From Pseudomonadota bacterium (GTDB taxonomy: Bacteria > Oederibacteriota > Muellerivitia > Muellerivitales > Muellerivitaceae): a stretch of DNA of 61,363 bases. Shown here one piece after another: positions 20,708 to 56,100 of the stretch. Location of the stretch: assembly GCA_021324075.1 (NCBI GenBank), contig JAJPJW010000211.1:1-61363 (forward strand), written 5' to 3'. The notes below the pieces were generated by a model. The model was not told the DNA's origin and did not search any database. It saw nothing but the letters and a program-made list of their open reading frames with translations. A program made the position numbers and the translations under genes. Numbering within the stretch: position 1 is the first letter of the stretch; each line of letters begins with the position of its first letter.

Positions 20708-20956
20708 TTAAGAAGCCTTTTTGACAGCCTGGCGTTTCTGGACCTTGCCGGAACGCAGGCAACGGGTGCAGACCAAAATGCGTTGGGGGCGGCCATCCAC
20801 GATAGCACGGATGGTTTGAAGATTGGGCATTTGGCGCCGCAGATGCACGCCGGTGATGTTCAACCCGATCCCGCCTTCCTTCTTGGATTTACCGCGACGG
20901 GTGATCTTACGGGCCTTGATGGGGCCCTTGGAACAGATGTCACAAACTTGAGCCAT
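20708..20956 (-). CDS. rpmB: 50S ribosomal protein L28 (zinc-binding type)
   Basis: An 82-residue L28. Four cysteines in two CxxC pairs (CDIC at 5-8 and CTRC near 65-68) mark the zinc-binding (C+) form. An open frame continues 38 residues upstream, but MAQVCDICSKGP is the normal start and has AGAGGAG-like Shine-Dalgarno sequence before it. It is monocistronic, with its own promoter and terminator. Confidence 0.95.
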   Translation of the reverse strand: MAQVCDICSKGPIKARKITRRGKSKKEGGIGLNITGVHLRRQMPNLQTIRAIVDGRPQRILVCTRCLRSGKVQKRQAVKKAS

Positions 20957-21089: not shown

Positions 21090-22037
21090 ATGCTTTCCTT
21101 GCATCAACAACTTGAAAACTGTTTGAAACCGCTCCGTTTGGAGGCAAAGCAGGGATTCACCAACCAATCGGTGATCAAAGGGTTGGACCGCTATTTGATG
21201 GGACAATGCGAAGAACTGCTAAAAGCGGGACAGGTGGATGGGGAGTTTTCAACCTACTTAAAGGCCCTTCGAAGCTCTTTTTCCCAATACATGACCTATT
21301 CTCCCGACGAGAGGCGGGAGTTGGTGGAAAAAACACAGAAGCAAATCACCGACTGGATCAAGAAAATCCCGGCGCCGGCGTTGCCCCCAACAAAGCGGAC
21401 CTCTGCCGAGAAACAAAGCCTTTTGGATCTGGTGCTGCCGTTTGTTTCCAAGGATAAGGTCCGGGCTTTTCACCTGACGGGCCTCAAGACGGTGGAGGAT
21501 TTACTGCATTATCCCCCCAAGTGGGCGGTTAACCGCAGTTCCTTTACCCCGATTGCTCAATGCGAAAACCGGGATGAGCCCTACTTTATCCTGGCCCGTA
21601 TCAACGGTGTTTCCCAAGTGAGGCGCGGGCGCTTGGAAACGGTCAAGGTGGTTTTGCAAGACGCCAGCGGCCATTTAAGCTGGGTGTGGTTCAACCGTCC
21701 TTATTTGAAAAAGGAACTGACCAACGGAAGGTGGGTCCTCCTCCATGAAACGCCCCAAGTTTCCAAATGGGGCCGGCAGGTGGTTGGGAAAGCGGAGACT
21801 TTTGAGTTCCTGGCGCCCGAGGAGGAACAGTCCCTTCGGGACGGCAAGACCCTGGTCTTTTACCCTTCCACGGCCACCTTGACGCAATCCTTTTGGCGGA
21901 AACTCGTTGGAACGGCATTGGATAAATATCGGGACGCCCTTCCTCAAACGACCATGGAAAATTCGCCTTTTGGGGAAAATCGGCTTGGCGGACGCCATTC
22001 GCGAAATCCACCGGCCGGCGGCCTTGGAATCCTTTGA
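21090..22037 (+). CDS. recG: RecG helicase, N-terminal part (before a frameshift)
   Basis: This frame encodes the N-terminal helical extension and wedge/OB domain of RecG, the branch-migrating helicase for stalled forks. Typical segments are LDLVLPFVSKDKVRAFHLTGLKTVEDLLHYPPKW, here broken over 21420-21530, then the OB strands. True RecG sequence runs to about base 21970 (YRDALPQT). The frame then turns into unrelated sequence and stops at 22037. The rest of the gene continues in the +1 frame. The start ATG at 21090 has GAGGTGG upstream. Read with the next entry as one gene. Confidence 0.85.
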   Translation: MLSLHQQLENCLKPLRLEAKQGFTNQSVIKGLDRYLMGQCEELLKAGQVDGEFSTYLKALRSSFSQYMTYSPDERRELVEKTQKQITDWIKKIPAPALPPTKRTSAEKQSLLDLVLPFVSKDKVRAFHLTGLKTVEDLLHYPPKWAVNRSSFTPIAQCENRDEPYFILARINGVSQVRRGRLETVKVVLQDASGHLSWVWFNRPYLKKELTNGRWVLLHETPQVSKWGRQVVGKAETFEFLAPEEEQSLRDGKTLVFYPSTATLTQSFWRKLVGTALDKYRDALPQTTMENSPFGENRLGGRHSRNPPAGGLGIL

Positions 22038-23478
22038 GCAGGCCCGCAAAAGGCTGGCGTTCGAAGAGCTTTTGACCCTTCAAACTTTTCTTATTGTTAA
22101 GCGGAGGGCCATCGAAAAGCGTGAAAAGAGACGACAGTACCAATTTGACGGGGAACGGATTGTTGAATTTAGAAAAACAATCCCTTATGAGCCGACGAAT
22201 GCGCAAAAAAGGGCGGTAAAGGAAATCCGGGAAACCCTCGCAAAGCCCTACCCGATGAACCTCTTATTGCAAGGGGACGTTGGAAGTGGAAAAACCCTGG
22301 TGGCCGCCATCTCCTGCCTTTATGCGGCGGATTCTGGCCTTCAGAGCGCTTTTATGGCGCCCACTGAAATACTTGCCCAGCAACATTATTTGAATTTAGA
22401 GAAACTCATGGCCCCACTTGGAGTGAAAATCCTTTTGTTGACGAGCGATATGCGGTCCAAGACTAAAAGGGAGACATTGGAAGCCCTCGAAAAAGGGAAA
22501 GTTGATGTGGCGGTTGGGACCCACGCCTTATTGGAAGAAGCGGTGAAATTCAAGAATCTTGGTTTTTTGGTGATCGATGAAAGGCACAAGTTCGGCGTCC
22601 TTCAAAGGGCGGCCTTGGAGTCCAAGGGGAAATGGCCTGATTGTCTCATGATGACCGCGACTCCCTTTCCGCGGGCCTTGGTCCTAACGGAGTACGGGGA
22701 TACGGACCTCTCCATTTTGGACGAGTTCCCGAAAGGGCGGAAAGGCATTAAGACCTTCTGGCGAAACGATTCGAAAAGGGATGAAGTCTACCAATTCGCC
22801 AAGGAAAGGATCTTAAAAGGCGAGCAGGTTTTCTGGGTTTTACCGGTGGTTGAGGAATCCAAGACCTTTTTAAAATCCGCGATCCAAATGTACCAACACT
22901 TCCAGAAGGAAATATTCCATGGGTTCAAAGTGGGGTTGTTGCATGGAAAGATGAAAAAGGACGAAAAGGAAGCCGTAATGGATGCCTTTAAGAAAAAAGA
23001 AATCCAGATTTTGGTTTCGACAACGGTGGTGGAAGTGGGAATCGATGTTCCGAACGCCACCCTCATGGTGATCGAACACGCGGAACGCTTCGGCCTGGCC
23101 CAGCTTCACCAACTGCGGGGAAGGGTCGGGAGGGGAAGTGAACAGTCCTATTGTTTCCTATTGACCTCACCGGTCATTTCCGGCGAAGCCATTCAACGAA
23201 TGAAAATCATGGTTTCCACCCTCGATGGCTTCAAGTTATCCGAATTCGACCTTAAAATGCGGGGACCGGGAGAAATCTTCGGCCTTGCCCAGTCTGGCCG
23301 GCGTGAAGGGGGCATTGTTGACTTGAAGCGGGATGTGGATGTGGTGGATGAAGCCCGGAGGGTGGCATTGGAGATCCTGGACAGGGATCCAAAGTTAACG
23401 AGCTTTCAAAATCAAAGCTTGAAATACAGTTTGGATTCGAAGTACCGAAATCTGCTGGATTTGGCCCAAATTTCTTAA
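21907..23478 (+). CDS. recG: RecG helicase, C-terminal part (after a frameshift)
   Basis: RecG homology starts at about base 21979 (KIGLADAIREIHRP); the open frame before that is noise. Present are motif I LLQGDVGSGKT, the Walker B segment DERHKFGVLQR (DEQH in most RecG), TATPFPRAL (motif III), and the helicase C domain with STTVVEVGIDVPNA and QLRGRVGRG (motif VI). The TRG-type C-terminal region follows. Both halves together would give about 790 residues, slightly long for RecG because of the N-terminal extension. All motor motifs are intact, which suggests a functional product or a base-count error rather than an old pseudogene. rsmD starts 10 bases after the stop. Confidence 0.85.
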   Translation: MERHWINIGTPFLKRPWKIRLLGKIGLADAIREIHRPAALESFEQARKRLAFEELLTLQTFLIVKRRAIEKREKRRQYQFDGERIVEFRKTIPYEPTNAQKRAVKEIRETLAKPYPMNLLLQGDVGSGKTLVAAISCLYAADSGLQSAFMAPTEILAQQHYLNLEKLMAPLGVKILLLTSDMRSKTKRETLEALEKGKVDVAVGTHALLEEAVKFKNLGFLVIDERHKFGVLQRAALESKGKWPDCLMMTATPFPRALVLTEYGDTDLSILDEFPKGRKGIKTFWRNDSKRDEVYQFAKERILKGEQVFWVLPVVEESKTFLKSAIQMYQHFQKEIFHGFKVGLLHGKMKKDEKEAVMDAFKKKEIQILVSTTVVEVGIDVPNATLMVIEHAERFGLAQLHQLRGRVGRGSEQSYCFLLTSPVISGEAIQRMKIMVSTLDGFKLSEFDLKMRGPGEIFGLAQSGRREGGIVDLKRDVDVVDEARRVALEILDRDPKLTSFQNQSLKYSLDSKYRNLLDLAQIS

Positions 23479-23488
23479 GAGGCAAATT

Positions 23489-24076
23489 GTGCGCATCATT
23501 GCGGGTAGATTCAAAAGCCGGACGGTTAAAGCGCCCAAGAACATGCGGATTCGTCCCACCTCGGACAAGGTCAAGGGCGCGCTTTTTAACATGCTCGAAC
23601 CTATCGGGGGTTGCAGCGTGGTGGACTTTTATGCCGGCACGGGAAACCTGGGGTTGGAAGCCTTAAGCCGCGGCGCCGGTGAAGTGGTATTCGTTGAAAA
23701 GGCGCCGGACAGCCTGAAACTGATATCAGAGAACCTTCAAAGCTTCGAAATTAATCCACGGAATCCCAACGAACACGTCCGTGTCATCCCCTCCGAGGTT
23801 TCCAAGGCCTTTTATTTGCTCCATCAAGAGGGCAAAAAGTTTGATATTCTACTGGCCGATCCTCCTTATGAAACAGGGATCTTGAAACGCCTTCAACATC
23901 TTTTGATGGAGTACCCGATTTTAAAAGACGGCGGTATTTTCGCTGTCGAGCACGGCCAGAAGGATACGGAACTGGAAGGGAATTTCCCTTACCCCTTGGT
24001 TCGGCAGAAAAAATACGGTGATACGCTTTTAACTTTGTTTAAAAACAGCCCCGATAGTTCCCCGGAAGGCGATTGA
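23489..24076 (+). CDS. rsmD: 16S rRNA m2G966 methyltransferase RsmD
   Basis: A 195-residue SAM-dependent methyltransferase. It begins MRIIAGRFKSR, then RPTSDKVKGALFNML, the SAM site VVDFYAGTGNLGLEALSRGA, and the catalytic ADPPY motif (N/DPPY). It modifies G966 of 16S rRNA in the small subunit. Start is GTG with AAGAGG upstream. It precedes coaD, the very common rsmD-coaD pair. Confidence 0.94.
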   Translation: MRIIAGRFKSRTVKAPKNMRIRPTSDKVKGALFNMLEPIGGCSVVDFYAGTGNLGLEALSRGAGEVVFVEKAPDSLKLISENLQSFEINPRNPNEHVRVIPSEVSKAFYLLHQEGKKFDILLADPPYETGILKRLQHLLMEYPILKDGGIFAVEHGQKDTELEGNFPYPLVRQKKYGDTLLTLFKNSPDSSPEGD

Positions 24077-24087
24077 GAGGACAAAAC

Positions 24088-24573
24088 TTGGCGAAGAAAA
24101 CAATCATCGGACTTTATCCCGGGTCCTTCGATCCTGTCACCAACGGCCATTTGGACATTGCCCAAAGGGCCCATAAAATCTGTGATCAATTGCATATTGC
24201 GGTAGTGGCCAATCCCTCAAAAAAAGTCCTTTTTTCGGTGGAGGAAAGGGTTGATTTCTTGAAAAAAACAACCCGGCATTTGCCGAAGGTGGTCATCTCC
24301 TCCTTCAACGGTCTTTTGGTGGATTACGCCCGCCACATCAAAGCCGGCATGATTTTCCGGGGTTTGAGGGCTGTAGCCGATTTCGAGTACGAATTCCAAA
24401 TGGCCCTCATCAACCGGAGCCTTTACCACGGTATTGAAATTGTTTTTTTGGTCCCAAACGAGAAGTTCATTTTCCTCTCCTCCAGCGCCATCAAAGAAGT
24501 CGCCATGCTCAAAGGCGATGTCAGCGGATTCGTCCCGGCGGTGGTTGAAAAAGCCTTGCGCAAGATTTATTAA
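24088..24573 (+). CDS. coaD: Phosphopantetheine adenylyltransferase
   Basis: A 161-residue nucleotidyltransferase making dephospho-CoA from 4'-phosphopantetheine and ATP. GLYPGSFDPVTNGHLDI holds the T/HxGH site, and the C-terminal EKFIFLSSSAIKEVA holds the ISSS-like site. An in-frame TTG overlaps the rsmD stop at 24073, but the TTG at 24088, 7 bases after GAGAGG, gives the standard N-terminus. CoA production fits the fatty-acid operon that follows. Confidence 0.94.
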   Translation: MAKKTIIGLYPGSFDPVTNGHLDIAQRAHKICDQLHIAVVANPSKKVLFSVEERVDFLKKTTRHLPKVVISSFNGLLVDYARHIKAGMIFRGLRAVADFEYEFQMALINRSLYHGIEIVFLVPNEKFIFLSSSAIKEVAMLKGDVSGFVPAVVEKALRKIY

Positions 24574-24685: not shown

Positions 24686-24804
24686 CCCCCCTGCTTTTAA
24701 GGCGGTCCCGGGTTGTCACCCTCCATTTTTGGCCTTAAATTGAAGCAAATCGAATGGATTGCGAACAGCAAAAGGCTGTGGCATGGAAGGGAGGCGGCGC
24801 AAAG

Positions 24805-25320
24805 ATGTTGAAGGTTGAAATGCGCTCGCTGGAACAAGAAGACCTTGTTTTAGAGGAAAAAGACTGGGCCCAGGCTTTGGGGATCGAGTTAACCCCCGAA
24901 TTGTGCCGGGAACCGCTTGAAATCTATTGTGAGCTCTCCAAAAACGGGGATGTGATTTCAGCCAAGGGCTGGGTTCAAAGCAAAATGGTCCTGGAATGTG
25001 ACCGTTGCCTGAAAGGTTTTGAAAGCTGGTTTAAGTCTTTTTTCGAAGTCCATTACCGGCCCCAATGCCAGGAAATGGAAACCGAAGAGGAGTTTCCCGA
25101 AGAGCAATTCGAAGTTGTGTATTTTGACGGGGATATCCTGGATATCGCCGACCAGATCCGCCAGACCGTGCTGTTGTCCGTCCCTATGAGGGCCCTCTGT
25201 CGTGATGACTGTCGGGGCCTTTGCGGCGGCTGTGGATGTGACTTGAATGTGGAATCCTGCCAGTGCCAGGAACCGCCCGCCGATCCCCGGTGGGATGCAC
25301 TAAAAAAACTGAAATTTTGA
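24805..25320 (+). CDS. yceD: YceD/DUF177 family protein
   Basis: A 171-residue DUF177 protein. It has the middle segment VLECDRCLKGFE, and the cysteine-rich C-terminal pattern CRDDCRGLCGGCGCDLN with a final CQC, likely a metal site. DUF177 proteins are nearly always encoded before rpmF and are implicated in 23S rRNA synthesis or processing in other bacteria. An upstream in-frame ATG (24754) exists, but the ATG at 24805 follows GGGAGGCGG and gives the family's N-terminus. Confidence 0.88.
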   Translation: MLKVEMRSLEQEDLVLEEKDWAQALGIELTPELCREPLEIYCELSKNGDVISAKGWVQSKMVLECDRCLKGFESWFKSFFEVHYRPQCQEMETEEEFPEEQFEVVYFDGDILDIADQIRQTVLLSVPMRALCRDDCRGLCGGCGCDLNVESCQCQEPPADPRWDALKKLKF

Positions 25321-25365
25321 GATGTCAAAATTAACGTTTTAAATTTGTGATTTTTGGAGGTTGTC

Positions 25366-25548
25366 ATGGCTAATCCAAAGCGTCGGCATTCCCGCCAGCG
25401 CCGGGACAAGCGCCGCACTAATTGGAAGATCAAGACGAATTCGCTCTCGGTTTGCCCCCAGTGCAAAAGCGCCAAATTGCCCCATCGGGTCTGTCCTACC
25501 TGCGGTTACTACAAAGGCAAAGAAGTCGTCAGCGTTGATATTGCCTAA
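25366..25548 (+). CDS. rpmF: 50S ribosomal protein L32
   Basis: A 60-residue L32 starting MANPKRRHSRQRRDKRR. It has a zinc ribbon: CPQC and CPTC, Cys30/33/43/46. Start ATG follows a strong GGAGGTT. The yceD-rpmF-plsX order is conserved across bacteria. Confidence 0.96.
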   Translation: MANPKRRHSRQRRDKRRTNWKIKTNSLSVCPQCKSAKLPHRVCPTCGYYKGKEVVSVDIA

Positions 25549-25560
25549 CCAACCCTAACA

Positions 25561-26616
25561 ATGAGAATTGCCCTTGATGCCATGGGTGGCGACTTCGCCC
25601 CGCGGGAAACCGTCCAAGGGGCCGTCCTCGCCGTGCAGGATGCGGAAGTCCTCGGCATGGCCAACCACGATTTGGAAGTCGTGCTGGTTGGGCGCAAAGA
25701 GGACATTGAGAAGGAACTTTCCGGAGCCGGGAAATACCCCCAAAAATCCATTTCCATCCTGGACGCAAGGGAAGTGGTGGAAATGGGGGAAAGTCCCGCC
25801 CAGGCCTGCAAACAGAAAAGGGATTCTTCGGTCGTCCGCTGCGCCGAGCTTGTCAAAAAAGGCCAAGTGGCGGCCACCGTATCGGCGGGTAATTCGGGTG
25901 CAACCATGGCCGCGGCCTTGATGATGTGCGGCCGGCTTGATGGTGTCCTCCGCCCCGCTATTGTCACCATGGTTCCCAGCGTTCAGGGCATCTCGGTCCT
26001 GGTGGATGCGGGCGCCAATGTGGATTGCAAGGCCAAGCATCTTCTTCAGTTCGCCTTGATGGGCGACGTTTTCGCCCGCACGGTGTTGAATTTCAAGAAT
26101 CCCCGGGTCGGGTTGCTTTCCATTGGGGAAGAGGAAACCAAAGGCAATGAGTTGGTTTTCGAAGCACAGGCCCTTCTGAAAAAAGTTCCCTTGAGCTATA
26201 TCGGCAATGTAGAAGGCCGGGATATCGTCAACGGTAATTGCGATGTGACGGTTTGCGACGGCTTTGTCGGCAATGTGACCTTAAAAGCCATCGAAGGCGT
26301 AGGGGAACTGGTTTATAAACTTCTCAAGAAGGAAATGAGCTCGAACCTTTTTACTTTGGTGGGAGGGCTTCTGGCTGCACCCGCTTTCCGGAGGTTTAAG
26401 CGCAGCATTGATTATAAGGAATACGGCGGAGCGCCCCTTTTGGGCATCGATGGACTGAGCCTGATTTCACACGGTAAATCAAACTCGGTGGCCATTAAGA
26501 ACGCCATCCGGGCCACATTGCGCTGTGTCAACAAGGACATGAACGGGTTCTTGAAGGACCAAATCCTCAAATACGGGCAGGTCATAGACAAGCCCGAACC
26601 GAAAGCGGGAAACTAA
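25561..26616 (+). CDS. plsX: Acyl-ACP:phosphate acyltransferase PlsX
   Basis: A 351-residue PlsX making acyl-phosphate from acyl-ACP for phospholipid synthesis. It has MRIALDAMGGDFAPRETVQGA, SAGNSGA(T)MAAAL, and the later CDGFVGNVTLK and GAPLLGIDG. The start ATG lies 12 bases after rpmF and lacks a clear Shine-Dalgarno site. Translation may be coupled. Confidence 0.95.
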   Translation: MRIALDAMGGDFAPRETVQGAVLAVQDAEVLGMANHDLEVVLVGRKEDIEKELSGAGKYPQKSISILDAREVVEMGESPAQACKQKRDSSVVRCAELVKKGQVAATVSAGNSGATMAAALMMCGRLDGVLRPAIVTMVPSVQGISVLVDAGANVDCKAKHLLQFALMGDVFARTVLNFKNPRVGLLSIGEEETKGNELVFEAQALLKKVPLSYIGNVEGRDIVNGNCDVTVCDGFVGNVTLKAIEGVGELVYKLLKKEMSSNLFTLVGGLLAAPAFRRFKRSIDYKEYGGAPLLGIDGLSLISHGKSNSVAIKNAIRATLRCVNKDMNGFLKDQILKYGQVIDKPEPKAGN

Positions 26617-26617
26617 C

Positions 26618-27610
26618 TTGAGCCATAAAATCCACGCAGGCTTCTTGGGAACGGGGTCCTACCTTCCGGAGAAGATCCTGACCAACCAGGACATGGAAAA
26701 AATCGTCGAGACGTCCGATGAATGGATCGTTACCCGAACCGGGATCCGGGAACGCCATGTGGCCGCGCCCAACCAATTCACTTCGGATATGGCGGTCGAG
26801 GCGGCCAAGGTCGCCCTGGCGGACGCCAAGCTCAAAGCTACGGATTTGGATTTGATCATCGTGGCCACCATTACTCCCGACACGCCCACCCCGGCCACCG
26901 CTTGCTGGGTGCAAAGCAAACTGGGAGCTTTCCAGGCCGCCGCCTTTGACTTGTCGGCGGCTTGTTCAGGATTTGTCTACGGCTTGACGGTGGCCAAGGC
27001 ATTCGTCGAAAGCGGGACTTACAAGCATATCCTTCTGATTGGTGCCGAAAAGCTGACCGCTTTTATCGATTGGAAGGATCGGGGCACTTGTGTTCTTTTC
27101 GGCGACGGCGCCGGGGCCACTATTATCGGGCCGGTGGATGAAGGCCACCACCAGATCCTTTCCTCTTTCATGGCGGCCAACGGCAACGAGGCCGATCTTT
27201 TAAAGATCCCCGGTGGGGGGTGCCGCGTTCCAAGTTCCAAAGAATCGATCGAACAAAGCCTCCACACGCTTAAAATGGAAGGCAAAGAAATATTCAAAAC
27301 GGCCGTGAAAGTCATGAGCGAAGCGACCCTGGAGGCCGCCCAAAGGGCGGGGTTGAAACTCGAAGACTTTTCATTGGTTATTCCTCACCAAGCCAACATC
27401 CGCATCATCCAGGCCATTGGTGAAAGGCTGAAGCTGGATCCGAACAAACTCTTTATCAACCTGGACAAGATCGGCAATACTTCCGCGGCTTCGGTCATCA
27501 TCGCCCTGGATGAGGCTATTAAAAAGGGTAGGGTAAAGAAAGGCGACCATTTGGCCCTTGTGGCTTTTGGGGCGGGCACCACCCTGGCCTCTTGCGCGGT
27601 CAGGTGGTGA
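26618..27610 (+). CDS. fabH: Beta-ketoacyl-ACP synthase III
   Basis: A 330-residue KAS III starting fatty-acid synthesis from acetyl-CoA (or a branched acyl-CoA) and malonyl-ACP. The catalytic triad is visible: Cys116 in SAACSGF, His in IPHQANIRI and Asn in GNTSAAS. ETSDEWIVTRTGIRERH is the conserved N-terminal segment. Start is TTG, one base after the plsX stop. fabD starts two bases after its stop. Confidence 0.96.
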   Translation: MSHKIHAGFLGTGSYLPEKILTNQDMEKIVETSDEWIVTRTGIRERHVAAPNQFTSDMAVEAAKVALADAKLKATDLDLIIVATITPDTPTPATACWVQSKLGAFQAAAFDLSAACSGFVYGLTVAKAFVESGTYKHILLIGAEKLTAFIDWKDRGTCVLFGDGAGATIIGPVDEGHHQILSSFMAANGNEADLLKIPGGGCRVPSSKESIEQSLHTLKMEGKEIFKTAVKVMSEATLEAAQRAGLKLEDFSLVIPHQANIRIIQAIGERLKLDPNKLFINLDKIGNTSAASVIIALDEAIKKGRVKKGDHLALVAFGAGTTLASCAVRW

Positions 27611-27612
27611 CC

Positions 27613-28536
27613 ATGAAACAAGCTTTCGTATTCCCGGGACAAGGTTCCCAATCCGTAGGGATGGGGAAAGACCTTTTTGAAAACTATCCCGAATGCCGCG
27701 AGGTTTTTGAAAAGGCCGACCAGGCCTTGGGTTTTTCACTCTCGGGCCTTTGTTTTGAGGGGCCGGAGGAAGAATTGAAGAAAACAACCAATACCCAACC
27801 CGCCCTTTTGACTTGTTCTACGGCAGTCCTGGCCGTGCTTCGAAAAAACAACGTCCCATTTGAAGCCGTTTCCGGCCACAGCCTGGGGGCCTATAGCGCC
27901 CTCGTGGCTGCCCAAGCCCTGGCTTTCGTGGATGCAGTCAAATTGGTCCGCAAGAGGGGGGAATTGATGGAGGAGGCGGGGAAAGGCCGAGGCACAATGG
28001 CCGTGATCCTGAACCTGGAAGAGGACAAAGTGGCCCAAGCCTGCCGGGAAGCCTCTTCGCAGGGCGTTGTGGAACCTGCCAACGTCAATTGCCCTGGCCA
28101 AATTGTGATTTCCGGGGAAAAGGCCGCCGTAGCGGCAGCTTGCGAAAAAGCCAAGGCCCTGGGGGCCAAAAGGGCCATGGAGCTTCCTGTCAGCGGCCCC
28201 TTTCATAGTTCCCTCATGAAACAGGCGGCGGACGGACTCTCGAAAATCCTCGAGACCGTTCAGTTTTCCGCGCCACAAGTCACCTATTATTCCGATATTG
28301 ACTCGATTCCCATGGGCGACCCGGCTTTGATAAAGGCGAGCCTGGTCCGGCAATTGATGGCTCCAGTGCAATGGATTAAAACAATCGAAAATATGAACCG
28401 GGACGGTTTTACGGCCTTTGTGGAGGTCGGCCCCGGCAAGGTTTTGAACGGCCTTATCAAGAAGATTTCCAAAGATGCCGTGGTCGCAAACGCCGGCGAT
28501 GTGGAATCCATTAAGCAGGTTGGCGAGGCAAAATGA
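27613..28536 (+). CDS. fabD: Malonyl-CoA:ACP transacylase
   Basis: A 307-residue transacylase loading malonyl groups onto ACP. FPGQGSQSVGMG and the nucleophile elbow GHSLGAYSA (Ser90) are present, with the catalytic His in SGPFHSSLM. The frame is open from 27592, inside fabH, but the ATG at 27613 starts the conserved region. The stop overlaps fabG in an ATGA. Confidence 0.96.
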   Translation: MKQAFVFPGQGSQSVGMGKDLFENYPECREVFEKADQALGFSLSGLCFEGPEEELKKTTNTQPALLTCSTAVLAVLRKNNVPFEAVSGHSLGAYSALVAAQALAFVDAVKLVRKRGELMEEAGKGRGTMAVILNLEEDKVAQACREASSQGVVEPANVNCPGQIVISGEKAAVAAACEKAKALGAKRAMELPVSGPFHSSLMKQAADGLSKILETVQFSAPQVTYYSDIDSIPMGDPALIKASLVRQLMAPVQWIKTIENMNRDGFTAFVEVGPGKVLNGLIKKISKDAVVANAGDVESIKQVGEAK

Positions 28537-29276
28537 ACTTAAAAGATAAAACCGTGGTTGTAACCGGCGGAAACCGGGGCATTGGAAAAGCCATCGCTTT
28601 GGCCTTTGCCCAACAAGGGGCGGCCGTAGCCATTTGCGGCACCAATGAAACGACTTTAAAAGAAACATCCGCTGAAGTCGAAAGGGTCGGCGCGGCCAAG
28701 AGTCTTGGCCACAAAGTCGACGTTTCAAAAGAAGATCAAGTTGAGGCTTTCACAAAATCCGTCCTTGAAGCCTTTGGCAAGGTTGATATCCTCGTCAACA
28801 ACGCGGGGATCACGAAGGACAACCTGCTCCTCCGCATGAGCGAACAGGACTGGGAAGACGTATTGAACATCAACCTCAAAAGCGCTTTTTTAATGACCAA
28901 ACACTTCGTGAAACCCATGATGAAGGCCCGGCGGGGCCGGATCATCAACATCACTTCCGTCAGCGGGGTCAAAGGAAACGCGGGCCAGGCCAATTATGCC
29001 GCCAGCAAAGCGGGGTTAATTGGGCTGACCAAGACGACCGCCAGGGAATTTGCCAGCCGGGGCATTACCTGCAATGCCATCGCGCCAGGATTCATCCAGA
29101 CGGATATGACGAGTGCACTGGGAGAAAAAGCATTGGCTGAAGTGACCACCCAAATTCCTCTAGGGTTTTTAGGCGAAACATCGGATATCGCCAATACGGT
29201 TTTATTTTTTGCCTCGGACGAAGCCAGGTATATTACGGGACAAGTTATTTGCGTTGATGGTGGAATGGTGATATAA
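28533..29276 (+). CDS. fabG: 3-oxoacyl-ACP reductase
   Basis: A 247-residue short-chain dehydrogenase reducing beta-ketoacyl-ACP with NADPH. The cofactor loop is TGGNRGIG, NNAG follows, and the catalytic residues are Ser142, Tyr155 and Lys159 (NYAASKAG). The C-terminus reads ARYITGQVICVDGGMVI, typical of FabG. Coupled to fabD by a 4-base overlap. Confidence 0.96.
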   Translation: MNLKDKTVVVTGGNRGIGKAIALAFAQQGAAVAICGTNETTLKETSAEVERVGAAKSLGHKVDVSKEDQVEAFTKSVLEAFGKVDILVNNAGITKDNLLLRMSEQDWEDVLNINLKSAFLMTKHFVKPMMKARRGRIINITSVSGVKGNAGQANYAASKAGLIGLTKTTAREFASRGITCNAIAPGFIQTDMTSALGEKALAEVTTQIPLGFLGETSDIANTVLFFASDEARYITGQVICVDGGMVI

Positions 29277-29298
29277 GGGTCTGCTTTTCGCAGGGCTG

Positions 29299-29326
29299 TT
29301 GAAAAGGGCCGTTTTTTGCATAAGAT
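29299..29326 (+). promoter_or_regulatory. Possible internal promoter for acpP
   Basis: TTGAAA (29299-29304), a 16-base spacer and TAAGAT (29321-29326), in the 78-base fabG-acpP gap. acpP is often boosted by an extra promoter because ACP is abundant; this candidate is weak. Confidence 0.3.
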
Positions 29327-29354
29327 GGGCACAATTTTCATGGAGGTGAAAAAG

Positions 29355-29591
29355 ATGGCTATTGAAGATAAGGTGAAGGAAATCATCGTCGATCAACTGG
29401 GCGTGGAACCCGAGCAGGTGAAGCCCGAAGCCTCCTTTATCGATGACCTGGGCGCGGATTCATTGGACACCGTCGAATTGGTCATGGCTTTTGAGGAAGA
29501 GTTCGACCTGGAAATTCCCGATGAAGATGCCGAGAAGATCAAATCGGTCGGGGACGCAATCAACTACATTAAGTCCAAAGCCTCGGAGTAA
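29355..29591 (+). CDS. acpP: Acyl carrier protein
   Basis: A 78-residue acidic protein. The phosphopantetheine-attachment Ser36 sits in [19 protein letters not shown], and [13 protein letters not shown] is typical. It carries growing acyl chains for FabH, FabD, FabG and FabF. The start ATG follows a perfect GGAGGTG; earlier in-frame ATGs at 29316-29340 lack such a site. Confidence 0.97.
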
Positions 29592-29615
29592 ATTTCCCTG
29601 TCGCCGGAGGAAGCC

Positions 29616-30860
29616 TTGAAAAGAGTCGTCATCACCGGTTTGGGGGCAGTCACCCCCAACGGAAACAACCCCACTGATTTTTTTACCAACATTTGCGATG
29701 GGAAAAGCGGCATTGGAACGATCACCCGTTTCGATCCTTCACGCGTTCCCAGCAAAATCGGCGGGGAGGTCAAGGACTTCGACCCGGTCAAGTTCGGTAT
29801 CGAGAAAAAAGACGTCCGCAAGATGGATTATTTCGTCCAGTTCGCCGTGGCGGCCAGCCTGCAGGCTGTTGCCGATGCCAAGCTGGACATGGGCAAGGAA
29901 GACAAAACCCGCGTTGGGGTCCTGATCGGTTCCGGCATCGGGGGGCTTCCTGTTTTGGTGGAACAACACGCCCGACTCATTGAAAAGGGGCCGGACCGGG
30001 TGTCCCCATTCCTGATTCCCATGATGATCATCAACATGGCCTCGGGAATGACTTCCATTTATCTTCAGGCTCAGGGGCCGAACACCTCGACGGTTTCCGC
30101 TTGCTCTTCGGGAGCCCATGCCATCGGGGAAGCGATGCGTTGGATCCAAAAAGGGGAAGCCGACGTCGTTATTGCGGGCGGGACGGAAGCCTGCATCACC
30201 GAATTGGGATATGCCGGCTTTTGCAACATGAACGCCCTTTGCATGGACTTCAACGACAGCCCCACGAAGGGAAGCAGGCCTTTCGACAAAAACCGTTGTG
30301 GTTTTGTCATGGGGGAAGGCGCCGGCATTGTGGTGCTGGAGTCCCTCGAGCATGCCCAAGCCCGTGGCGCCAAGATCTACGCGGAAGCCATTGGCTATGG
30401 AACCACCTCGGACGCTTACCACATGACCACGCCCGCCGAAAACGGCGAAGGTGCCGCCCGGGCGATGCAACTGGCTTTGAAGGACGCAAAAATGGGCCCG
30501 GAAAAAATTGACTATATCAACGCCCACGGTACTTCCACACCCTATAACGACAAGTTTGAGACCATGGCGATCAAGACTGTGTTTGGGGAACAGGCCAAGA
30601 AGGTTGCCATCTCTTCAACCAAATCCAGCACGGGACATCTTTTGGGCGCCGCGGGCGGAATCGAGTACGTTGCCTGTGTCATGGCCATTCAAAAGGGAGT
30701 ATTGCCCCCCACCATCAACCTGGAGTTTCCAGATCCGGATTGCGATTTGGATTACATCCCGAATCAAAAGCGCTCCCAAACCGTAAATATTTGCCTTTCC
30801 AATTCCCTGGGATTTGGCGGCCACAATGTCTCTCTCATTGTTCAAAAATTTAATTCCTAA
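29616..30860 (+). CDS. fabF: Beta-ketoacyl-ACP synthase II
   Basis: A 414-residue condensing enzyme extending acyl chains. The nucleophile is Cys163 ([16 protein letters not shown]), and the two histidines are in [11 protein letters not shown] and [27 protein letters not shown] starts the protein. Start is TTG with the strong site CCGGAGGAAG. The 3' end overlaps the rnc start by about 35 bases. Confidence 0.96.
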
Positions 30861-31629
30861 AAAAAAGAGCGACGCGAGCCGAATTGAAGTCGCCCTAGAA
30901 AAATCCAGGCTTGACCAGCTCAAGCAATTCTCAAAAAAGCTTCAAGTTCCACTAGGTGATGGCCAGCTTTTGAACGAAGCGCTCACTCACAAGTCCTATA
31001 CCCACGAACGGAAGATGAACCCCAGTTACAACAATGAGAAATTGGAGTTTTTGGGGGATTCGGTTTTAGGGCTTGTCATCAGCCAGCATGTGTTTGAAAC
31101 CTATCCGGGAGTGACGGAAGGCGGCCTTTCCAAGGTCAAAAGCGTGGTTGTCAGCGCCCAGGTTTTAAGCGAGAAGGCGGCTGGTTTTGGCCTGGGTGAC
31201 TTCATCCTTCTGGGGAAGGGTGAGGAAAAGTCCGGCGGGCGGGTCCGGACCTCCCTCCTGGCGGATGCCCTGGAAGCTGTCATCGGGGCTGTTTACCTTG
31301 TGGGTGGGCTTTCGGAGGCGCGAAAATTGGTCCTGAGTCTGTTGAAAGACGACGTCGGCAAGGTTTTTTCGGGCCGGATCGAAAAAGACCACAAAACACT
31401 TCTCCAAGAATATTTTCAAAAGACCCAAAAGACCGCCCCCCGTTACGAGGTTGTCAGGGAGTGGGGACCGGATCACAATCGAAATTTTGAAGCGGCATGC
31501 ATCATTGGCGGAAAGACACTGGCTACCGGAACGGGGAAAAATAAAAAGGAAGCGGAACAACTGGCCGCACAGGAAGCCATCCGAAAGCTTAAAATCCAGG
31601 TCTCCACGCCCAGCGACCACAAAATTTAA
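30826..31629 (+). CDS. rnc: Ribonuclease III
   Basis: A 267-residue RNase III cutting double-stranded RNA (rRNA processing). The signature [14 protein letters not shown] is at about residues 70-83, and [12 protein letters not shown] carries the second metal ligands. A double-stranded RNA-binding domain ends it ([10 protein letters not shown], then [13 protein letters not shown]). The start is uncertain: ATG 30826 or TTG 30814, both inside fabF, giving a ~30-residue basic N-terminal extension beyond the usual start. fabF-rnc adjacency is common. Confidence 0.93.
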
Positions 31630-38997: not shown

Positions 38998-39027
38998 TTG
39001 ATGAAATTTTGAAAAAGTTTCTATGTT
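38998..39027 (+). promoter_or_regulatory. Possible promoter for tRNA-Gly
   Basis: TTGATG (38998-39003), 18-base spacer, TATGTT (39022-39027), 14 bases before the tRNA 5' end. Confidence 0.35.
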
Positions 39028-39041
39028 TCCGGTTTTTTTAA

Positions 39042-39118
<77 letters not shown>

Positions 39119-39139
39119 TTTTTAAAAATCCTCTGCTTT

Positions 39140-40642
39140 TTGATTTACCAAGCCGCGTTGTTCTTTCCGCTGCCCCTGGTTCTTTACGCCCAAGTAACCA
39201 CCGATTTCCAAAGGCCTTTTGACCAGGGCCGGGTTATTGAGCTTCCAGGTACTTCGGAATATCAGGGCGATCTCCAGCAAGAAATTGAATGGGAATCTGA
39301 TTTTCCCCGCGTTCACACCCTGGAAGGGATCCTCAATCAAGAAATTGGTTGGGTTCCAACGTCCACGGGAACTGACAGTGCATCGGCTCAAGCTTTGTTT
39401 GAGGGTATCCCCTATCCTTTCCCTTCTTCCAATTTATTGACTTGGGTGCCAGCCTTCCGAAATTTTGAACTGCTTAATTTTCCGGCTTCGGGATGGTGGG
39501 GACCCTCTTCCGCCGTGGGTGCGGTTCAAATCCGCTTACCGGACGAAACAAATGTCTCAAGATCCACCTTTGGGGGGTGGGGCGGTTCCGGCGGAGTCTG
39601 GGGGGGCGAAGGCGACTATGAGAATCCGGACTTTTCCATGGAGGGGTCTTTTCAACACGGTTCGCCAAATTCTTTCGCCTCGACCGATGCGCTTAATATT
39701 CTCTTTGGTTCGAACTTAACAACCAATGATTCCTTAAAAATAAAAACAGGATTCTTGGGGGCTGAGTGGTTTGGCGGCGACAATTGGTATTCCTGGTTCG
39801 GGAGTCTGAAATGGGAAAGCGCCAATTTCCAATCCCTTGAGTTTAAGCCTTTTGTTCAATCCGCCGAACTGAACGGGGTGACCGTTCAAGAGGTTGGCAG
39901 TGACCTCAATTATCACTTCACCATGGGCGGATTGGTGGAGAGCCAGTTGGGATTTGGCTTAAGCCATGATGATTTCTCAGTGGGAGCGGAATCTCTCAAC
40001 AAGGGATATGTCCAAAACCTTGAAATTATAAATGTGTTGGACGACTTCAAGTTGAATATGGCTTTTCGAATGGATTTTTCCAGCACTATGGAGGGTATGT
40101 TCAGCACCACACTGGGCTCCCAATACCGGCTTGGAGATTTTTCAATCATTGGGAGTTATTCAAAGTCGGTCGAGCCGTTATCGCTAACCGATGTAATACA
40201 CGGAGATTTGGGGATCCTGTATCAACCCACGGATTCTTTTTTGGCGGCATTCCGAGTTCTAACCGAAATGTTTGAAAACAGTTGGTGGACGGGTGGCCGG
40301 GCTAAAATCGAATACGACCTTAGCGGTAATGTCCTTGGTTTGCTCCGGGAACTTAAATTTCGAGTTGAAAATCAATTCTTGGAAAGCTCCTCCGGCGGCA
40401 CGCTACTGGATACCGCTGGAAGGGTTGAGTGGAGCTTTGACCAACCTCTGACATTTTGGTTTGAAGCGCGTGGATTTTCAGAACGGAATTTCTATACGGA
40501 CGGCGGCATTGACTGCCTTATCACAAGACAAACAAAAATTTATGCTTCCATTGTGAACATCGGGAATTATCCCGCTTTTTGGCCGGATTCGACGACCCCC
40601 GAAGGACGGATCGCCTGGTTGGGGATAGAAACCGGCTTTTAA
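39140..40642 (+). CDS. TonB-receptor-like outer-membrane barrel with plug-like N-terminus
   Basis: About 500 residues. After a hydrophobic leader (ending near VLYA|Q) comes a plug-like domain: LEGILNQEIGWVPTSTG, ALFEGIPYP and PASGWWGPSSAVGAVQIRLP, which parallel the plug pattern of TonB receptors. The remainder is alternating beta-strand sequence ending in ETGF, a barrel-type C-terminal Phe. No TonB box is seen, and it is short for a 22-strand receptor. The start is uncertain: TTG 39140 is proposed. The open frame runs back through tRNA-Gly (to 39023), which cannot be coding there, and no Shine-Dalgarno site is visible. Confidence 0.6.
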   Translation: MIYQAALFFPLPLVLYAQVTTDFQRPFDQGRVIELPGTSEYQGDLQQEIEWESDFPRVHTLEGILNQEIGWVPTSTGTDSASAQALFEGIPYPFPSSNLLTWVPAFRNFELLNFPASGWWGPSSAVGAVQIRLPDETNVSRSTFGGWGGSGGVWGGEGDYENPDFSMEGSFQHGSPNSFASTDALNILFGSNLTTNDSLKIKTGFLGAEWFGGDNWYSWFGSLKWESANFQSLEFKPFVQSAELNGVTVQEVGSDLNYHFTMGGLVESQLGFGLSHDDFSVGAESLNKGYVQNLEIINVLDDFKLNMAFRMDFSSTMEGMFSTTLGSQYRLGDFSIIGSYSKSVEPLSLTDVIHGDLGILYQPTDSFLAAFRVLTEMFENSWWTGGRAKIEYDLSGNVLGLLRELKFRVENQFLESSSGGTLLDTAGRVEWSFDQPLTFWFEARGFSERNFYTDGGIDCLITRQTKIYASIVNIGNYPAFWPDSTTPEGRIAWLGIETGF

Positions 40643-49545: not shown

Positions 49546-50100
49546 AAATCACCTTCTCCCTTGGATTTGGCAGATCTGGAATCCGCCGACAATCCCTTAG
49601 AGGGCAACAGTGGTGCCAATCCGGCAAAGGAAAATTTCCAATAAATGAACGGTTTTTATGGGGAAGAAAATGCGACAGGTGGGTTTAAAGGGACCGGCTG
49701 GGGAAAAATTACTCAATGAGCGGAAGCACCAGAGGAGTAATCAGCCCGGGTGTATTTAGATGGTGCCAAAACATAGACCGTCTCGGAACTCCACTTTACC
49801 AAGCTTTTAAGGGCCTGTTACCCGGACCTGTATAAGATCGTGTTATATTGAGGCCTTGTTTTGTCGTTTTTGCCCCTAAATATTGGGTTTTTCTCACTTG
49901 TTTTTAAAAAAAATGGCGATAAAATCAATAAAGCTCAAAGGTAACGCTTTTACCTTGATGGTTTCGGTGGGGGTCGCACCGTGCGGTGTAATTCTTTTTT
50001 AAATTTTAACGTTTATACATGGTCTGGGAATAGGTCCCTCGATGCGTCCTTTTTCCAATCCTTTACTTCCTTTTGCAAATATCAAATTAAAATTCCTCTT
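49546..50100. other. Divergent intergenic region, 555 bases
   Basis: No gene is supported here. It separates the reverse NHL-repeat gene from the giant surface-protein gene. TATATT at 49844-49849 is a possible -10 box, but no good -35 box is at 16-18 bases. At 49935-49985, just ahead of the coding region, two adjacent small hairpins occur. The first is AAGGTAA/TTACCTT around a 5-base loop; the second is CGGTG/CACCG around a 7-base loop. I could not match them to a known riboswitch class. Confidence 0.5.
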
Positions 50101-53100
50101 ATGACTTTTTCTTTACGGTTTTTCTTTAGTTGCACCCTTGTTTTTTGGAGTACGACCTTGCTCGCGGAAGCCCAAACCGCCTGCCCCAACTGGATCGCCG
50201 TCGGTAGTGCCACCATAGCCGGATCCGCAGTAACCCTGACCCCCAACGCAGGCGGACAAAGTGGCGCTTGCTGGAACAGCACGCCCATCGACCTCAACCA
50301 AAATTTCACCTTGGCCTTCAATGAATATTTTGGAACAGGGGGAGGCGCCGACGGGATCGCCTTTGTCCTGCAGGACGACATCCGTACAACTGCGGCCATC
50401 AGCGGCAATGGGCAGCCCTGCGGTTTTTGCCTGGGATACGGCGGAATCAATCCCATTACGCCGTCCGTGGCTTTTTCCATCAACGACTATCAGGACAACG
50501 GTGTTCTAAAGCCGTGGCAAAACGGGGTGACGATCCAAAGTTGTGGTTACGTTGGGGCGGGGAATTCCTGTCCCTATACCTTTACCAGTACAATCCAAAA
50601 TAACGCCACCCATGCCGTCACCGTTTCTTGGAACAGCGCCACAACGACCCTGACCTACACCATCGTGGACTCGGCCGGGGTGGCCCAATCCATGACCTAT
50701 GTCCGGGACCTGGTCAATACCGTGTTTGGCGGACAAAACCTAGTTTATTACGGATTCACTGCGGCCACCGGCGGCGCTTCCAGTCTCCAGTACATTACCA
50801 ACGCAACCTGCAATACGCCGACGCCCACTCCTGCCTGTTCAAGCGGCACGACTTTCGGCTTGAGTACGGTTGGAGGGACCGCCAGCGGCAATGAAGTCAA
50901 TATCCAGGACAGCACCCGTTACAATTTGGCGAGTTCTGCGACGATCACGAGCATGGCGATCAACCTCACGGCTGCCACGGGAGTAACTGGAGTCGTTGGA
51001 ATTTACGCCGATAATGCCGGGACCCCGGGGAATCTCATCACTCAAAGTTCCCAGCAACAGCTTGTTGCAGGCTGGAATCAGCTGAGTGTTGCCCCGGCTC
51101 CTTTGGTCGCTGGAAGCTATTGGCTTGCCTTTTATATGAGCGCTGGAACCGGAAACGTCGCCTTTAATGCGGGGGCCGCAAACAGCGAGTATTTTGTAAA
51201 TGAAACGGGAGGGCCCTTCAACAGCCTGCAAACTCCCTTTGGGGCGGGGACCGCCGGGACAAAGAATTTTTCCATTTATGCGGTTGGATGTATCGGCCCT
51301 GTGGCAACCCCGACTTTTACACCGACGATCACACCGACGATCATTCCTTGTTCCAGGACTATGAACAAGGCCGTAAGTATTATTGCGGCGGCAAATACCA
51401 CCAGTTTGACGCTGCCGTTGACGATTACAACGGGCCTCGCCAATCCCTTACTGGTTGTACAAATAAGTGATGAATCCAATGCAACCGGCATAACCTCGGC
51501 CACTTATAACGGCGTTAATTTGACCCTCGCGATGGGAGTGACCAGTAGCAATGGCGATGCTTGCTGGACTTATTATGAACCGGGGCCCAGCCTTCCGACA
51601 GACGGCCTCGCGCACAATATCATTGTCAATTTTAGCGGTTCCCATATTGCGGCCATGGGGGCCATGGTTCTTACGGGTGTCGCCCAAACCGCGCCGATCA
51701 TCGGAAATTCGGTGGCATTTCAACAGACGACGAACGTCACGAACCCCAATACGACCATCACGACGACCCAGCCCAATTCATTTATCATCGGCTTCGCCCA
51801 TTCCTACAACAATACCGCCATTACTGCCAGCAGCCCTCAAACCGTTGCCTGGACCGAAACCAACGCGGCCCGACACTGGGCGGGAGACTACCAACTGACC
51901 AACGGCACTGGTTCCTATCCCGTGTCCTATACAACGGGGAATATTCATACGGATATTCAAGCCATCGAATTTTACCCTTCCAGCTGTAACCCGACCGCAA
52001 CCCCGACGAAAACACCGACGAATACAACGACCAAAACCCCAACCTTTACCCCGTCCAGCACGGCCACCAACAGCCCCACGCTTACGCCCACCTTTACCCC
52101 GACCTTGACGGCGACTTATACGGCTACGAACACTCCAACGAGCACCACGACGAACACTACGACGAGTACAGCCACCAATACCACTACGAAGACCGCCACC
52201 AGCACCGCCACCTTTACTGCCACGAATACCCCGACCAATACCGCCACGAATACAACAACGACTACACCTACAAACACTGCCACCAATACCCCAACCAACA
52301 CGGCAACCAGCACAACGACTAACACAACTACCAGCACCGCGACCAATACGGCTACAAAGACTGCGACCAGCACCACAACCACTACGGCTACAAATACCAC
52401 TACCAATACTGCCACGAATACGCCGACCAATACGGCGACGAACACTGCAACTAATACACCCACCAATACCGCTACCAACACAGCTACCAATACGATGACC
52501 AACACGGCTACTAGTACTGCGACGAATACGGCTACAAGCACGGCCACCTTTACTACCACTAGTACCCCGACCAATACACCCACCAGCACGGCTACTAACA
52601 CTCCAACGAATACGGCAACCAATACAACGACTAATACTGCGACGAAGACCGCCACTACCACCGCTACGAACACGGCAACGAACACGACCACCAATACAGC
52701 GACGAATACCGCGACTAGCACTGCAACTAACACACCTACCAATACGACTACAAGCACTCCGACCAACACGGCTACGAATACGGCCACAAACACCGCTACA
52801 AATACGGCTACCAACACCACCACCAGCACGGCAACTAATACGACCACAAACACAGCCACTAATACTGCAACTAACACACCCACCAATACGACTACAAGCA
52901 CTCCAACCAACACGGCTACGAATACAGCTACTAATACTGCGACCAATACGGCGACGAAGACCGCTACCAGTACCGCCACCAATACAGCGACGAATACCGC
53001 CACTAACACCGCCACAAACACGGCTACCAACACGACGACCAATACCGCTACGAACACTGCCACAAACACTGCTACCAATACGACTACGAGCACTCCAACC

Positions 53101-56100
53101 AACACGGCTACGAATACGGCCACCAACACTGCGACTAGTACAACCACAAATACTGCAACGAACACGGGAACCAATACGGCCACAAGCACCCCAACCAATA
53201 CTGCTACGAATACGGCCACAAACACTGCAACCAGTACAGCTACAAATACCGCTACGAACACCGCTACTAATACAGCGACAAATACGACGACGAAAACCGC
53301 TACCAGCACTGCTACAAATACACCCACCAATACGGCCACCAACACCGCCACGAATACTGTTACGGACACAGCCACAAATACTGCGACCAACACGCCTACC
53401 AATACAGCTACCAGTACAGCCACGAATACCGCTACCAATACCCCCACGAATACATTCATCCATACGGCCACGAATACGGCGACGAGTACCCCGACCAGTA
53501 CGCCGACCAATACAACTACAAATACTCCCACCAGCACCACTACCAATACGGCTACGAATACAGCTACCGAAACGGCCACCAATACAGCGACCAATACACC
53601 AACAAATACACCGACCAATTCGGCGACGAACACTGCTACCAATACCGCTACAAATACTGCTACGAATACAGCCACCAATACGGCCACGGATACGGCAACT
53701 TACACGGCTACAAATACCGCTACGAACACGGCCACCAATACAGCTACTAACACAGCAACCAACACGGCCACTACCACCGCAACTAATACGGCGACAAATA
53801 CACCCACGAATACCACCACCAATACGGCTACGGACACGGCCACCAATACGCCGACGTATACGGCAAGCAACACTGCTACGTTGACGGCGACAAACACACC
53901 CACCAGCACAGCGACCAACACCACGACGAATACGGCTACCACTACCCCCACGAATACGGCAACCAACACGACGACCAATACCGCCACCAACACGCCAACG
54001 AATACTCCGACGAATACTGCTACGAATACAGCCACCAATACGGCGACCAATACCGCCACGAATACGGCCACGAACACGACCACTGATACTCCGACGAATA
54101 CGACCACGAACACCGCCACGGATACCCCGACGAACACCGCGACCAATACGGCCACTAATACGGCTACGAATACCGCCACGAGTACGGTCACCAATACGAC
54201 AACGAATACTCCGACGAATACGGCCACGAACACCGCCACGAATACCCCGACGAACACTGCTACCAATACGGCTACTAATACGGCTACGAATACCACTACC
54301 GCCACGGCCACCCAGACAACCACCGATACGCCGACGAATACACCGACTAATACCGCCACGGACACGGCCACCAACACACCGACCCAGACGGCCACAAATA
54401 CGGCTACTGACACGACTACGGAGTCCCCCACCAACACGGCCACTTCAACAGCAACAAACACTCCGACCGATACGGCGACCAACACGGCTACGAATACCGC
54501 CACTTCTACGGCCACGAACACAACCACTGATACTCCGACGAATACGCCGACTCACACCGCTACCGATACAGCCACCAACACCGCCACCAATACGACCACC
54601 AATACGGCTACATTCACCCCCACCAACACAGCGACCAACACGACAACGAATACTCCGACGAATACGGCCACGAGCACCGCCACAGATACCGCGACGAACA
54701 CTGCGACCAACACAGCGACCAGCACTACAACCAATACCGCCACCAGCACCACCACGAATACGCCGACCAATACGGCCACCTCAACCATCACCAGCACGCC
54801 CACCGTTACAGCTACGGCAACGCCGACCGATACGGGAACGCTTCCGCCGACCGCTACACCTACGAACACCGCGACCAATACTCCGACAGGTACTCCCACC
54901 AATACGGCCACGAATACGGCCACCAGCACGGCCACTAATACTGCGACCAATACGCCAACGAATACGGCAACTAATACCGCGACCAATACAGCCACCAATA
55001 CCGCGACTTCTACAACGACAAATACAGCCACCAATACCCCCACTGATACGGCCACCAGTACCACTACCAATACCGCCACACCAACAGCCACAAACACTGC
55101 GACGGCAACGGCCACCGATTCGCCCACCGAGACAGCTACGGGCACTCCAACCAACACAGCCACCGCTACAGCCACCCCCACAACCACAAATAGCCCGACA
55201 TCGACAGCTTCGAGCACGCCAACAGGCACGGCCACCAATACCGCCACTTCAACTTGTACTTATACGACGACCGCCACCGCCACCGGCACAGCCACCGCCT
55301 CTCCTAGCTCCACCACGACCAATACTTCCACCACTACCGCCACAGCTACGGCCACCAACACTTGCACTTCAACCTGCACCTCGACGCCGACGAATACCGC
55401 GACCCAAACAGCCACTTCAACCGCCACCGGGACCTTTACTTCCACGCCGACCTTTACGGCGACCTACACGCTCACGAATACGGCGACTTCCACCGCCACC
55501 AGCACCATCACCCTTACGCCTACCGTCACGGCCACTTCCACGATTACAGGAACTCCCACGAACACCCATACGCCCGGTTGCGGCCTCCAAATGGTCCAGA
55601 TTTACGACGACAGGGGCGAGCAGGTTGCTTCCATTTGCGGGTCGCTGTCCTTCTCGGGAGGGAGTACTTTCTCAATGTCTCTTTCCAATTTCGCACCCAA
55701 CTCAAACGGCCCTGGCGGGACTATCTCGATTTATTTGAATGGCCAAACAGTCGGGACGTGGAATGGTACGAAAGACAGCGGAGATTGGGTACCGAACGGG
55801 TTTTACCATTTTGTCTTGGTGGAACACTCGCCCGACGGGAGCACTGTCCAAATGGAAAGGGATGCCTTTATATCAACTTATCACGGCGAATCGATATCCC
55901 TGGTTGCTTGGCCCAACACGGCTCACCCTGGGCAAATGGTCAATTTCAACGCTTCTTTTGCTGGAACACCTGCGGATTCCCAAAGTAAAATGAAAATCTA
56001 TACAGCCGACGGGGAATTGGTCCAAACCGTCAGCTTTACAGTCGGAACCGCCCTTTGGGACTTGAGAAACCCCTCCGGCCAAGTTGTCGCATCCGGGCTT

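What the first reader, a model, noticed from the sequence alone, without database searches (positions are those of the whole stretch)
21960..21990. Apparent +1 frameshift inside recG at TTTTGGGGAAAA
RecG homology leaves one frame at about 21970 and resumes in the +1 frame at about 21979. The junction is a run of three 4-base homopolymers (21968-21979). All helicase motifs downstream are intact, so the gene does not look decayed. Either one base is extra in the assembly, or the strain carries a recent mutation, or the ribosome shifts frame here.
Basis: seen in the sequence. Interest (0 to 1): 0.6.

Follow-up and report, generated by a model that had tools for sequence, protein, structure and literature searches.

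The report
One-base frame break in recG assembly
The recG DNA-repair gene of this uncultured bacterium is split by one surplus base that none of its relatives carry; it is most likely a sequence-consensus slip or else a recent ordinary mutation, and nothing suggests a programmed ribosomal frameshift.

Summary
RecG homology runs in one frame to 21974 and resumes in the +1 frame at 21976, inside TTTTGGGGAAAA (21968-21979). The window is a contig of a 228-contig draft genome (98% complete) whose relatives are 'candidate division FCPU426' MAGs. In the five family members with a readable full recG the two halves abut in one frame; those five and a sixth, truncated copy have exactly one base fewer in the run. 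All 42 other genomes with a full-length RecG hit show one open frame without internal stops. The break is therefore private to this assembly, not a conserved recoding site, and no +1 signal is present. Helicase motifs and dN look normal, so the lesion is very recent or artefactual. In about 166 kb of comparable coding DNA recG is the only internal frame break. However, the same assembly carries an in-frame TAG about one third into prfA (RF1, essential in E. coli), absent from every relative with a full-length hit. That moderately favours consensus error (about 0.58) over a real recent indel (about 0.37); recoding about 0.04. Raw reads would decide.

The parts
21090..22037 (+). recG 5' part, frame 0: N-terminal region and wedge domain; after 21974 the frame-0 reading is non-homologous and ends at TAG 22035-22037
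21968..21979 (+). TTTTGGGGAAAA run holding one base more than in every readable family relative; frame switch between 21974 and 21976
21976..23478 (+). recG 3' part, +1 frame: helicase domains 1 and 2 and C-terminal domain, motifs intact (the mechanical ORF opens at 21907)
20708..20956 (-). rpmB (ribosomal protein L28), divergent neighbour, conserved in relatives
   Evidence: identified as L28 from own knowledge of the sequence
23489..24076 (+). rsmD-like methyltransferase (Cons_hypoth95), conserved next to recG in relatives
24073..24573 (+). coaD-like cytidylyltransferase, conserved downstream in relatives

Best explanation
An ordinary recG whose frame is broken in this one assembly by a single surplus base in a run of short homopolymers. 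Most likely the base is an error of the consensus (sequencing, low coverage or strain mixing in a metagenome assembly), and the living organism has an intact recG. Shown: the break, its privacy to this genome, and the otherwise normal gene. Inferred: that the base is not in the living genome.
For: One base more than all six readable family members, in a homopolymer context. All 42 other genomes with a full-length RecG hit have one frame without stops. No further lesion in about 2.4 kb, all checked helicase motifs kept, and dN to outgroups equal to that of congeners. Locus order rpmB-recG-rsmD-coaD is intact. No second recG copy in the genome. The same assembly shows an in-frame TAG within prfA (RF1), at about codon 120-127, absent from all other full-length relatives; a premature stop in a gene essential in E. 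coli suggests residual consensus errors. PMC3711429 expects BLASTp-validated singleton frame transitions to be sequencing errors rather than genuine indels.
Against: The assembly is otherwise clean: recG is the only internal frame break, with no internal nonsense codon, in about 166-168 kb of coding DNA comparable with relatives. A 4-base homopolymer is not a strongly error-prone context for short reads (own knowledge). No reads or coverage were available.
Confidence: 0.58

Rival explanations
1. A real, recent one-base insertion in the sampled strain that inactivates recG: a young pseudogene giving a truncated 315-aa protein with N-terminal region and wedge but no motor domains.
For: Homopolymer runs are natural indel hot spots (own knowledge). 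The assembly is otherwise clean at base level. recG is dispensable in laboratory E. coli (own knowledge). A very recent event would leave the rest of the gene as conserved as seen.
Against: recG is kept intact in every relative with a full-length hit. No sign of relaxed selection or a second lesion. The unexplained TAG in prfA suggests consensus errors in this assembly.
Confidence: 0.37
2. Ribosomal +1 frameshifting, programmed or merely tolerated: tRNA-Gly reading GGG (21972-21974) re-pairs one base downstream with GGG (21973-21975) and AAA is read next, so some full-length RecG is made.
For: Perfect re-pairing on GGGG is geometrically possible, and a tRNA-Gly(CCC) exists at 39042-39116. Rescue of indels in G runs by low-level frameshifting is known (PMC5009743).
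Against: Not conserved even in congeners. The A-site codon is GAA, not a stop. No A/T run of 8 or more for transcriptional slippage. Downstream RNA folds no better than shuffles (z 0.20). The tRNA-Gly(CCC) anticodon loop has the normal 7 bases. None of the near matches to a four-C version of its anticodon arm coincides with a tRNA gene listed.
Confidence: 0.04
3. Two separately translated proteins (a split RecG), the motor half starting at an internal start codon.
For: The +1 ORF contains TTG codons near the break.
Against: No relative has a split gene; the halves abut exactly with only one base between them, as an indel would give, not as an evolved gene split would.
Confidence: 0.01

Closest known systems
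RecG (ATP-dependent DNA helicase; TIGR00643 / NF008168; structures 1gm5 Thermotoga maritima, 9wm0)
   Same: Wedge domain, helicase motifs, C-terminal domain 3; long N-terminus, about 800 aa in relatives, close to the 780 aa of T. maritima RecG.
   Different: In this assembly the reading frame is broken between the wedge domain and the helicase part.
Singleton frame transitions (sequencing error or indel mutation) in the classification of PMC3711429
   Same: Homology-validated break, no conserved site in homologues, homopolymer context.
   Different: Nothing of note; reads were not available to choose between error and mutation.
Programmed +1 frameshifting as in bacterial prfB (RF2)
   Same: Direction of shift (+1) only.
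   Different: No conservation, no stop codon in the A-site, no SD-like stimulator seen just upstream by eye.

Membership tests
RecG helicase | Wedge domain in the 5' part | tested here: met
   PF17191 at 7.5e-14
RecG helicase | SF2 motor motifs and RecG C-terminal domain | tested here: met
   PF00270, PF00271, PF19833; motifs conserved; NF008168 711 bits for the 3' part alone against a cut-off of 718
RecG helicase | One continuous reading frame | tested here: not met
   Two ORFs in different frames in this assembly; continuous in relatives
Programmed +1 ribosomal frameshifting | Frameshift site conserved in homologues | tested here: not met
Programmed +1 ribosomal frameshifting | Stop or hungry codon in the A-site with an upstream SD-like stimulator | tested here: not met
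   A-site codon GAA; upstream sequence GGAAAATTCGCCTTTT read by eye, no formal scan
Programmed transcriptional slippage | Long A or T run (about 8 or more) | tested here: not met
   Longest run at the junction is 4
Programmed frameshifting | Trans-frame protein product | not testable with these tools
   No proteomics or reporter
Pseudogene | Relaxed selection or multiple lesions | tested here: not met
   No other break; dN to outgroups same as congeners; a very recent pseudogene would not show these
Sequence consensus error | Reads disagree with the consensus | not testable with these tools
   No reads or coverage held

The most novel reading that the evidence does not exclude
The surplus base is real and fixed, and the organism makes RecG by an unusually efficient +1 slip of tRNA-Gly on GGGG, possibly helped by altered decoding in this lineage; the in-frame UAG in its RF1 gene would then be a second recoded position.
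Probability: 0.02. Interest if true: 0.65.

Novelty: not a real feature. Interest (0 to 1): 0.08.

Why it matters
Mainly as quality control: recG in this assembly should be annotated as frame-disrupted and probably an assembly artefact, not as a loss of RecG or a recoding site. If the base proved real, it would be an ordinary recent loss-of-function mutation; only a proven trans-frame product would be of wider interest.

Tried and rejected
Programmed +1 or -1 frameshifting and transcriptional slippage: rejected for lack of conservation and signals. Suppressor tRNA with an enlarged anticodon loop: the window's tRNA-Gly(CCC) is normal, and no four-C relative of it lies at a tRNA gene; most of the genome's 42 tRNAs could not be read (six could). 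Error-riddled assembly: not so, recG is the only internal break in about 166-168 kb; other candidate breaks and in-alignment stops were upstream-neighbour, antisense or gene-end effects. Second intact recG copy: none. Papers on recG recoding: none found that describes it, and recG is not mentioned in the main text of the GeneTack survey. Two attempts with wrong coordinates gave errors.

Full report
Observation. The 12-base run TTTTGGGGAAAA is at 21968-21979 and occurs once in the window. Frame 0 from ATG 21090 gives 315 aa that match RecG up to residue 291 of the ORF (NF008168 profile position 292; wedge domain PF17191), then runs non-homologously to TAG 22035-22037. The +1 frame matches RecG from profile position 296 to 794, with DEAD, Helicase_C and RecG domain 3. 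The break falls between the wedge domain and the helicase part, as judged from domain matches and from alignment of an intact relative to T. maritima RecG 1gm5.

Origin. The window is contig C17 of a 3.57-Mb, 228-contig genome, 98% complete and 1.4% contaminated. Its close relatives carry titles 'MAG: candidate division FCPU426 bacterium'. No second recG exists in the genome; the only other match (C177) is 36% identical over part of the helicase region, consistent with the related helicase Mfd.

Relatives. In 59 searched genomes, each of the 42 with a full-length RecG hit has one open frame of 690 aa or more with no internal stop (ORF lengths for loaded loci). DNA alignment of six family members (two congeners at 82-83% amino-acid identity over the helicase part) shows exactly one base fewer than the window in the run in all six. 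Using window codons up to 21974 and from 21976, the two halves lie end to end in the same frame in the relatives (L032-L035, L064). Residues on both sides of the junction are recognisable: window ENSPFG / KIGLADAIREIHRP, congeners ENSSFG-TMGLADAIQEIHRP and ENPSLG-KINLADAIQEIHRP. The neighbourhood rpmB-recG-rsmD-coaD is conserved.

Not recoding. A programmed site should be conserved; this one is absent even from congeners. There is no A-site stop, no long poly-A/T run, no significant downstream structure (z 0.20), and the tRNA-Gly(CCC) has a normal 7-base anticodon loop. A +1 re-pairing on GGGG is conceivable, so low-level rescue cannot be excluded, but nothing points to it. The classification in PMC3711429 requires a conserved site in a cluster of five or more genes for programmed frameshifting, and treats validated singletons as probable sequencing errors.

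Error or mutation. Motifs are intact, and dN from the window to the family outgroups (N part 0.34-0.40; C part 0.16-0.18) equals that of the congeners (0.35-0.41; 0.15-0.18), so there is no sign of long-term decay. To gauge assembly quality I compared 0.81 Mb of this genome with 0.95 Mb of a congener and 0.23 Mb of other family members. About 166-168 kb of coding DNA was comparable, and recG was the only internal frame break. The remaining candidates are upstream-neighbour effects (for example L068, where one gene stops just before the next one starts), and no internal nonsense codon was found. So the consensus is generally good. However, profile searches show that prfA (RF1) in this genome (C36:21700-22752) has an in-frame TAG, absent from every other full-length prfA hit in 28 relatives. 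Searching with two parts of E. coli RF1 places it in the N-terminal part, near codon 120-127, since the downstream open frame is 233 aa (the codon number is my estimate from these spans). RF1 is essential in E. coli (own knowledge), and TAG is a normal stop here (67 of 378 confident genes). A consensus error is the simplest reading of the prfA stop, which modestly raises the same explanation for recG.

Verdict. It is a one-base frame break private to this assembly: error about 0.58, real recent indel about 0.37, recoding about 0.04, split gene about 0.01. These probabilities are judgement, not computation. Reads over 21960-21990 would decide it.

Noticed in passing
G000:C36:21700-22752 (own genome, outside the window): prfA (RF1) carries one in-frame TAG at about codon 120-127, absent from all other full-length prfA hits in relatives; consensus error, nonsense mutation or recoding.
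   Followed up: partly
window 39042-39116: tRNA-Gly(CCC) overlaps the start of a mechanical 539-aa ORF (39023-40642) that has no Pfam match; the true start of that gene, if it is one, must lie downstream.
   Followed up: no
window 24754-31629: Conserved cluster downstream of recG: yceD-like, plsX-like and, by position and the matches obtained, a fatty-acid synthesis operon including a ketoacyl synthase at 29616-30860.
   Followed up: no
window 49981-56181: A 2066-aa ORF with a very low codon-usage score for its length (score 23 over 2078 codons), unlike the neighbouring genes; possibly a large repetitive or foreign protein.
   Followed up: no
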